Assembly: GCF_020085105.1 (NCBI RefSeq)
Contig: NC_058062.1
Span: 3,684,945-3,748,944, forward strand
Source of the DNA: Siniperca chuatsi
Lineage: Eukaryota > Chordata > Actinopteri > Centrarchiformes > Sinipercidae
Reading direction: 5' to 3'
DNA length: 64,000 nt
Shown here: piece after piece, positions 46,601-49,600 of the stretch
Numbering within the stretch: position 1 is the stretch's first letter
Layout: each line of letters starts with the position of its first letter
Notes under the pieces: model-generated
The model's input: the letters and a program-made list of their open reading frames with translations, nothing else
What the model was told of the DNA's origin: nothing
The model's database searches: none
Program-made: the position numbers and the translations under genes

Positions 46601-49600
46601 TCAGAGGGCCCGTTTTCAAACTGAGAATGGTAATTCTTTTCCTCCTTTTATTGAATTTCATAAAGTTACAGAGTTTTAGTGAAATATATTTTCTTGTTTG
46701 GCTTGCGGCAGCTGAATTTTCCAGACAAATGGAAGAGAGAGAGAGTCTCATTTCCCAGCTGACGAGAGGAAAACAGGGATTCACAACAAAAATTGACGAG
46801 TTAAAAAGACTGATTGAGGAGGAAACAAAGGTAATCTAAGGTTTGTACACACTGACACTTTTCTGGTTTACATGGCTTTTTTCTCATGAAGCTCCATATT
46901 GGTGTCTTCCTTAATAGGCTAAGAACAGCTTGGCTCACAGTTTACAGTCAGCCCGTCATGACTGTGATCTCATCCGTGAGCAGTTTGAGGAGGAGCAGGA
47001 GGCCAAAGCTGAGCTGCAGCGCAGTTTGTCAAAAGCAAACACTGAGGTGGCTCTGTGGAGGAACAAATATGAGACTGATGCCATCCAACGCAATGAAGAG
47101 CTTGAGGAAGCAAAGTAATTATACACTAAGAGTAGATCAATAGATCAGGCTAATGTTGGCTTTAACTTAATACTAGATAGCAAACAGTTGTGTGGATAGT
47201 CCCTAATATGATAGAGTGCACATTCTATTTCTTCATTTAATGAGATTAATATTACATTGAAAAAAATGTTCATTTAAAGGTAGTTATCTACCCTCAAGAG
47301 CTTTTTTCTCTTCTGCTTTTCATGCTGGTTCCAACTCCACAAGGTAACACTTTACTTTGCTGGGCCATAATTTTCTAATAATTTTCTAATAAATTTGAAT
47401 AATGCCTGAGGTAGTTTCTTGGAAAGGACTTGGATTTTCTTTTTACTAATAATAAAGAAAATAGGGGCAGTGTTTATTTGGTACACTTCCAGTTAATTCA
47501 TTCCAATTAACTGCTTGCATAACCTACAGAGTCTTGTAGACAGTGAACAGCCAGCTGTTGTATGTTCAGTCAGCTGAACATACAAAAATATGAAATGTTT
47601 CTACAAGCAAGCATTCATTTCAACATATACTGTATAAAGGATAACGTTAATAATAATAATTGAATAATGACTGAATATTTATGATTGAATATATTTTTTC
47701 TGGAATTCAACAACTACGATGAAAACTCAACACAACTAATTAAACTCTAACTAAAATAACAGAACAGTTTTTCTCTATAACTTGTACTATATTACTTTGT
47801 TATGTCCAGCAAACTTCCATTAAATTATTAGAAAATTACAGACCCCATTACCTTCCAAAAACATTGATAGCTGTCATATTGGTTGTATTTTTAGTCCCCT
47901 ACAAAGTGGCACCTGGGTAAAAAATTTAATAATAGTGGTTTCACTTTTGACAGGAAAAAGCTCGCCCAGCGTCTCCAAGAGGCTGAAGAACAAATCGAAG
48001 CAGTGAATTCAAAGTGTGCCTCACTGGAGAAAACTAAACAGCGACTTCAAAATGAGATGGAGGATCTCATGGTCGATGTGGAAAGGTCCCACAGCTTAGC
48101 TGCCACCCTCGACAAGAAGCAGAGAAACTTTGACAAGGTATTTTCTTTGGCAATTAATGCTTAATACCACATCAATTTCTTTATATGACATCATTAATTA
48201 TTACTAGCTATTGTTTCAATTAATTCAGATTCTAGCTGAGTGGAAGCAGAAGTATGAGGAGTCTCAGGCAGAGCTGGAAAGCACTCAGAAAGAATCTCGA
48301 TCTCTGAGCACTGAGCTTTTCAAACTGAAGAACTCCTACGAAGAAGCCCTGGATCATCTGGAGTCGATGAAGAGGGAAAACAAAAACCTGCAACGTAAGT
48401 GGAATTTTATTGTGAGAAAGAACAGTTTGGGAGAAACATTTTAAATCATTGATTTCAAAACCTCTCTGTCAAACGCAGAGGAGATCTCAGACCTGACAGA
48501 ACAACTTGGGGAGAGTGGAAAGACAATTCATGAACTGGAGAAATTCAAGAAGCAGGTGGAGACAGAAAAATATGACATGCAAACTGCGCTGGAAGAATCT
48601 GAGGTACTGATAACAAACCATCAAATATGTCTTCAGTAAAAACACAGCATACAGCATTGGTGTAAGTAACCACTGACATTTAAATGGACAAAAATGTTTT
48701 TAAGGCCACCCTGGAACAAGAGGAGTCTAAGATCCTGCGTGTACAGATGGAGCTGAACCAGATGAAGGCTGAAGTTGACAGAAAAGTGGTGGAGAAAGAC
48801 GAGGAGATCGACCAGCTGAAGAAGAACAGCCAGAGAGTGATGGAGTCAATGCAGGCCACTCTGGATGCTGAGGTCCGCAGCAGGAACGACGCCCTGAGAG
48901 TGAAGAAAAAGATGGAGGGGGACCTCAACGAGATGGAGATCCAGCTGAGCCATGCGAACAGGCAGGCGGCCGAGTCCCAGAAACAACTGAGGAACATTCA
49001 GGGTCAACTCAAGGTACAACAACAAAGAGTAATGCGAGTAAAGACTATGTAACTTTTGAAAGAAGAAATAACAAATTCTTCCTCTTGCAAATGATAAGTT
49101 AAATTCATAAACCAAAAATCGCACCATTTCTCAGTTCAATACACTTAGGAGTTTTGCTGCTACAACCTTACTTGTTTAGGTATGACCAGTAGCTTATGGT
49201 GGCTAATTTTAGCTCATGTTAGAAAAATGACTTTACGACTCCTCTCTACTTGTGCTGGTGTTACCCTATGTTTTAGCATTTACTATTGTCTCCTAATTGC
49301 CAATTAAGGCCCCTGTAGCCGGGAGACTTTCAATGGACCCCTACGACCTGCAAGGCAAGGGTCACGTGACCGACGGGGGTAGTCATGCTAGCACCACTGC
49401 TAGTGAGCTAATCTGCTAGCACGCTGCTTACCACTGTTGGCAGTGCACACCGTTACAATATTATCTAATAGACCACACTGACTGTAGGTTTAACAATGTT
49501 GTTTTATGATTTTATTTTGTTTTTAAAGACACAATGGACATATTTAAGTAGGAATTCATTTTTGGAAATTATGATTTTATTTTAATAATCACAATGGTAG

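What the first reader, a model, noticed from the sequence alone, without database searches (positions are those of the whole stretch)
48873..49000. 128-nt block with no differences between MYH-B and inverted MYH-C
MYH-B 48873-49000 equals the complement of MYH-C 57745-57618 at all 128 positions by direct reading, synonymous sites included. The 13 bases that follow differ at several sites (GGGTCAACTCAAG in B, AGTTCAGCTGAAG in C), as do those before. B and C are tail to tail and these tracts lie only about 8.6 kb apart. C therefore shares one block with A and another with B, a mosaic pattern.
Basis: partly seen in the sequence, partly recalled or inferred. Interest (0 to 1): 0.82.

Follow-up and report, generated by a model that had tools for sequence, protein, structure and literature searches.

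The report
Gene-conversion tract between two muscle myosins
Two long-separated muscle myosin genes that sit tail to tail share a 128-letter stretch with no differences, most likely because one gene recently copied that piece of the other, a known kind of exchange seen here between strongly diverged neighbours.

Summary
It lies inside the 309-nt rod exon of MYH-B and of the inverted, tail-to-tail MYH-C. In 985 rod codons outside the two rod tracts B and C are saturated at synonymous sites (pS 0.761); in the block they differ at 0 of 25. Forty degenerate codons in a row are identical; the longest run in 5000 shuffles was 16. The introns on both sides show no B-C similarity. MYH-A differs from both at 29 of 128 bases, with 12 of 20 changed codons synonymous, so constraint does not explain it. 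C also shares 151 of 152 nt with A in its 390-nt exon, and A and B share 63 nt in a motor exon. Outside the two rod tracts no pair stands out. Best reading: recent interlocus gene conversion between old, inverted paralogues. Conversion among MYH genes is known, so this is a new case of a known kind. Direction, date, species and freedom from assembly error could not be tested.

The parts
48873..49000 (+). 128-nt identical tract, MYH-B copy (42 codons and 2 nt of the myosin rod)
   Evidence: 128 of 128 identical to 57745-57618 reversed; 0 of 25 synonymous sites differ
57618..57745 (-). 128-nt identical tract, MYH-C copy
48705..49013 (+). 309-nt rod exon of MYH-B that holds the tract
   Evidence: AG/GT ends, open frame, same length in A, B and C; Pfam PF01576 Myosin_tail_1; aligns to Myosin-7 residues 1549-1651
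57605..57913 (-). 309-nt rod exon of MYH-C that holds the tract
28830..29138 (+). the same exon in MYH-A, not part of the exchange; differs from B and C at 29 of the 128 tract positions
25861..26012 (+). A-C tract, MYH-A copy, inside the 390-nt rod exon (25849-26238)
   Evidence: 151 of 152 identical to C; 1.0 of 35.0 synonymous sites differ in 50 codons; global p 0.0016, or 0.012 with no mismatch allowed
60220..60371 (-). A-C tract, MYH-C copy, inside the 390-nt rod exon (59994-60383)
19657..19719 (+). A-B tract, MYH-A copy, 63 nt in an open block of the motor part (exon ends not set)
   Evidence: 63 of 63 identical to 40751-40813; run of 20 degenerate codons, reached by 1 of 5000 shuffles, p 0.0004
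40751..40813 (+). A-B tract, MYH-B copy

Best explanation
The block is the footprint of a recent interlocus (ectopic) gene conversion between MYH-B and MYH-C, two old paralogues of a vertebrate sarcomeric MYH cluster that lie tail to tail. A break or stalled fork in one copy of the 309-nt exon was repaired by copying about 128 nt from the other, without a visible crossover. Shown: the identity, its sharp edges, saturated silent divergence outside it, no B-C similarity in the two introns beside the exon, and tracts for the other two pairs. Inferred: that DNA repair synthesis made it, that B or C (not an unseen fourth gene) was the donor, and that it is recent. Exchange seems to be limited to exons because little else still aligns.
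For: Synonymous differences B-C: 0 of 25.0 in the block, 26.5 of 37.0 in the rest of the same exon, 455.7 of 598.7 in 985 other codons. Fourfold sites: 0 of 13 differ inside, 0.544 of 241 outside. All 29 informative sites in the block are B=C. The block is 42 of 42 identical in protein, while 5 of the 12 residues just before it differ (alignment). Introns on both sides of the exon give no B-C blastn hit. Permutation tests. The other two pairs also show tracts. The two significant rod tracts lie in the two longest of 18 rod exons, 390 and 309 nt, as expected if homology length gates exchange. Adjacent inverted paralogues are known to convert (PMC3966223, passages).
Against: The rest of the exon is only about 76% identical between B and C (from the per-exon value), low for ordinary homologous recombination, so a short template switch is also possible. 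No outgroup or second individual was available, so direction and reality in the organism are untested. In the three-gene test A-B shows no significant rod tract (global p 0.999), so the A-B leg rests on one pairwise test in the motor part.
Confidence: 0.83

Rival explanations
1. Template switching during replication (microhomology-mediated, between inverted arms) copied the block, rather than classical conversion by homologous recombination. The outcome is the same and this overlaps with the best explanation; only the machinery differs.
For: The rest of the exon is about 76% identical and the introns beside it give no B-C hit; the arms are inverted and 8.6 kb apart; a stickleback MYH cluster expansion was attributed to microhomology-mediated repair plus non-allelic recombination (PMC12776057, passages including the summary).
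Against: The tract is in register within homologous exons and no insertion, deletion or junction scar is seen, which homology-guided copying predicts; the other two tracts are in register too.
Confidence: 0.3
2. Assembly or consensus error: reads of one gene were used to build or polish the other over 128 nt.
For: No reads or second assembly are available; the block is near short-read length (inference).
Against: Both copies keep unique flanks, open frames and splice sites; no N in the window; the rest of the exon differs by about a quarter, so reads would rarely be misplaced (inference); the tracts of three pairs have different lengths (63, 128, 152 nt).
Confidence: 0.08
3. Strong purifying selection on the nucleotide sequence (splicing enhancer, overlapping RNA or gene) kept B and C identical since duplication.
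For: The rod protein is conserved; the opposite strand of C is stop-free for 258 codons (57563-58336).
Against: A differs at 29 of 128 positions, 12 changed codons synonymous; edges are sharp; Rfam gives no match in the window at gathering scores; selection would have to hold all 13 fourfold sites in B and C but not in A.
Confidence: 0.02
4. Recent duplication of the block alone, or of B and C as whole genes.
For: Identity alone is compatible with a young copy.
Against: The block takes the homologous place in a full exon in both genes, 18 rod exons have the same lengths in all three genes, and silent sites are saturated outside.
Confidence: 0.01
5. Both copies were converted by a fourth MYH beyond the window.
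For: C runs off the end of the window, and MYH clusters can hold more genes (PMC3869912, passages).
Against: Needs two events; B and C are neighbours; within the window the next best match to the block is A, 81% over 119 columns.
Confidence: 0.06

Closest known systems
[quoted passage not shown] only its title seen, in the reference list of PMC6558913)
   Same: By its title, conversion among skeletal MYH genes; that it concerns chicken genes is recalled.
   Different: I could not read it, so tract sizes, divergence and orientation there are not compared. Here the pair is inverted and saturated at synonymous sites.
Threespine stickleback MYH3C cluster (PMC12776057, passages)
   Same: Fish fast MYH cluster; the authors offer extensive gene conversion or independent expansion for within-species grouping, and explain small deviating patches by gene conversion.
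   Different: The amplified copies there are recent direct tandem duplications; here the three genes are saturated at silent sites, one is inverted, and the tracts are short and exonic.
Ectopic conversion between adjacent inverted paralogues, e.g. C. elegans hsp genes (PMC3966223, passages)
   Same: Neighbours in opposite orientation exchanging sequence; a conversion tract next to a 77%-identical region is described for the direct pair fog-2/ftr-1.
   Different: The hsp modules are described as 100% alike and fog-2/ftr-1 has a synonymous divergence of 28%; here silent sites are saturated.

Membership tests
Interlocus gene conversion tract | Identity between paralogues much longer than their divergence allows | tested here: met
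   40-codon run vs at most 16 in 5000 shuffles; global p 0.0006
Interlocus gene conversion tract | Conflict with the relationship shown by the rest of the genes | tested here: met
   29 of 29 informative sites B=C in the block; near-even split outside
Interlocus gene conversion tract | Non-reciprocal, flanks left in place | tested here: inconclusive
   Flanks differ sharply; no sign that the parts 3' of the block were swapped (A=B against A=C before and after, Fisher p 0.25), but the test has little power
Interlocus gene conversion tract | Donor and recipient identified with an outgroup | not testable with these tools
   No vertebrate genomes in the collections; only MYH-A for comparison
Vertebrate sarcomeric MYH | Rod exon lengths as in known MYH genes | tested here: met
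   18 of 19 recalled lengths found in A, B and C with AG and GT ends; the 19th (last exon, 135 nt) was found at that length only in B (the list was recalled). The 18 joined exons are open in one frame
Vertebrate sarcomeric MYH | Sequence match to sarcomeric rather than smooth or non-muscle myosin | tested here: met
   Best PDB hits Myosin-4, then Myosin-7, for the two exons tested in A, B and C; smooth and non-muscle myosins far lower and absent at its 1e-10 cut-off
Fast MYH locus with SCO1 and GAS7 as neighbours | SCO1 next to the cluster | tested here: met
   SCO1-SenC domain in the open frame 6661-6948; neighbours named in PMC3869912, a passage
Fast MYH locus with SCO1 and GAS7 as neighbours | GAS7 at the other end, genes head to tail | tested here: inconclusive
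   The window ends inside MYH-C, so GAS7 is out of reach; A and B are head to tail, C is inverted

The most novel reading that the evidence does not exclude
In this cluster exons act as the last homology islands between otherwise diverged myosin genes, and exchange still happens through them in both orientations and among all three pairs, after silent sites have saturated. The perfect inverted 128-bp arms could also recombine, invert the 8.6 kb between them and swap the rod 3' ends of MYH-B and MYH-C in frame, so inversion haplotypes with chimeric myosins might segregate.
Probability: 0.12. Interest if true: 0.6.

Novelty: new member of a known kind. Interest (0 to 1): 0.36.

Why it matters
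It is a clean, well-bounded case of sequence exchange between paralogues whose silent sites are saturated and whose neighbouring introns show no similarity, in inverted orientation. It warns that exon-level trees and orthology calls in fish MYH clusters can mislead, and it could help set how little homology ectopic conversion needs. It does not change what is known about myosin function: the exchanged part is conserved coiled-coil rod.

Tried and rejected
Selection on the nucleotide sequence was rejected because MYH-A differs at 12 synonymous codons of the block. A known RNA was not found (Rfam gathering scores, 0 matches). A swap of the 3' gene parts by inversion was looked for through similarity to A before and after the block and not seen, with little power. 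An A-B run in the 171-nt rod exon (49 nt, p 0.0016) is not claimed: the three-gene test picked another A-B segment and gave p 0.94 for the pair and 0.999 overall. The motor A-B tract could be tested only pairwise, because C is cut by the window end; its blocks came from ungapped blastn without exon ends, some held a stop or noncoding bases, and they included the first rod exon. Introns: 4 of 17 rod introns were compared on their own (after exons 5, 6, 12 and 13); B-C gave no hit in any, A-C gave one 18-nt hit (E 0.004) after exon 6, and permissive gapped blastn ran through some short introns, so 'introns do not align' is shown only for the tested ones. Literature: six searches listed no title or abstract on this tract; some listings were capped (20 of 33, 25 of 28, 15 of 1466 papers) and the library lacks most subscription journals, so this is weak evidence. 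PMC2720389 was searched for myosin terms and had none. Pfam was run on ten open frames: one is the MYH-B exon, one matched SCO1 (with a weaker AhpC-TSA hit below its cut-off), eight matched nothing at E 0.01.

Full report
What was checked. Among exact repeats of 50 nt or more in the window, direct or inverted, this is the longest.

Where it lies. The window holds three sarcomeric myosin heavy chain genes: A (+, about 15.7-31.6 kb), B (+, about 37.7-52.4 kb) and C (-, from the window's right end to about 54.9 kb), B and C tail to tail. Nineteen rod exon lengths were recalled; 18 consecutive ones were found in all three genes with AG before and GT after, the last one at that length only in B (several exons had more than one candidate, and I chose the one in register with its homologues). 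The 3232 nt so joined are stop-free in one frame in all three genes. The block is inside the 309-nt exon, Pfam Myosin_tail_1, aligned to residues 1549-1651 of Myosin-7; by position the block codes for about residues 1605-1646. Best solved-structure matches are Myosin-4 and then Myosin-7 for this exon and for the 390-nt exon in A, B and C. An open frame with a SCO1 domain at 6661-6948 precedes gene A; SCO1 and GAS7 are named among the syntenic genes of fast MYH regions in PMC3869912 (a figure-legend passage).

Is it more than conserved protein? Nei-Gojobori counts: in 985 rod codons outside the two rod tracts the proportion of synonymous differences is 0.731 (A-B), 0.775 (A-C) and 0.761 (B-C), that is, saturated. 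In the block B-C is 0 of 25.0, A-B and A-C 16.3 of 25.8. In the rest of the same exon B-C is 26.5 of 37.0. With 25 sites and no change, pS is below 0.113 at 95%. Among 810 degenerate codons where B and C encode the same residue, 0.549 are identical; the block has 40 in a row, and 5000 shuffles within amino-acid classes never exceeded 16. A three-gene permutation test on 441 silent polymorphic codons gave global p 0.0006 for B-C here and 0.0016 for A-C in the 390-nt exon (0.012 if no mismatch is allowed); for A-B nothing in the rod was significant (0.999).

Mosaic. In the block, 29 of 29 informative sites are B=C. In the A-C tract (152 nt) 27 of 28 are A=C. Outside these, 5' of the block the shares are A=B 0.33, A=C 0.31, B=C 0.36, and 3' of it 0.29, 0.35, 0.37. 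So B and C do not group for every exon. A and B share 63 identical nt in the motor part, a run of 20 degenerate codons that 1 of 5000 shuffles also reached (p 0.0004). Each pair thus has a tract, though the A-B one rests on a pairwise test only.

Mechanism. The introns beside the 309-nt exon show no B-C similarity by blastn; the one after it is 1306 nt in B and 91 nt in C. Four of 17 rod introns were compared in this way: B-C none in any, A-C one 18-nt hit; permissive gapped blastn of whole genes did run through some short introns. The two significant rod tracts lie in the two longest rod exons (390 and 309 nt) and end inside them, so a spliced RNA template is not suggested; exon ends around the A-B motor tract were not set. 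Copying of a neighbour's exon during DNA repair explains the identity, the edges and the register. The weak point is the low identity around the tract (about 76% in the rest of the exon), which makes ordinary recombination inefficient; PMC3966223 (passages) notes that linked neighbours may convert despite moderate divergence and in either orientation. A template switch would leave the same footprint. Whether a crossover also inverted the 8.6 kb between the arms cannot be told: similarity to A before and after the block does not change significantly (Fisher p 0.25), but the near-star relationship gives the test little power.

Known background. Gene conversion in MYH families is stated in PMC12776057 (passages) and is the subject, by its title, of a 1992 paper that I saw only in a reference list. 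The case is therefore a new example of a known process. What seems less usual is the saturated silent divergence, the inverted arrangement and the involvement of all three pairs; six literature searches do not suffice to claim that this is unprecedented.

Limits. No vertebrate collection, reads or second individual could be consulted; the species is unknown (that it is a fish is an inference from gene content and compact introns); the search of the window's own genome did not complete. Direction, date and freedom from assembly error are open.

Noticed in passing
6661-6948 (+): SCO1-SenC domain frame upstream of MYH-A. [quoted passage not shown] here three genes follow SCO1, the third inverted.
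   Followed up: partly
2619-3107: Minisatellite with overlapping 14-, 20-, 34- and 82-nt periods, free of stops in frames of both strands.
   Followed up: no
16566-16614, 38881-38934 and 55595-55647: Short repeated noncoding element, 83-87% alike, in an intron of each of the three genes.
   Followed up: no
32579-32755 and 63817-63998: Diverged repeat, about 82% identical over 184 columns.
   Followed up: no
54862-54993 (-): The last aligned exon of MYH-C has no stop in the 60 codons translated, unlike A and B, and a GTGAGT follows at 54861, so C may have a further 3' coding exon.
   Followed up: no
57563-58336 (+): Stop-free frame of 258 codons on the strand opposite the MYH-C rod exons; probably a by-product of codon composition.
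   Followed up: no
30873-31043, 50821-50991, 55922-56092: The 171-nt rod exon is unusually alike in all three genes (85-87%) with short identical runs, possibly older exchange; not supported for A-B by the three-gene test.
   Followed up: partly
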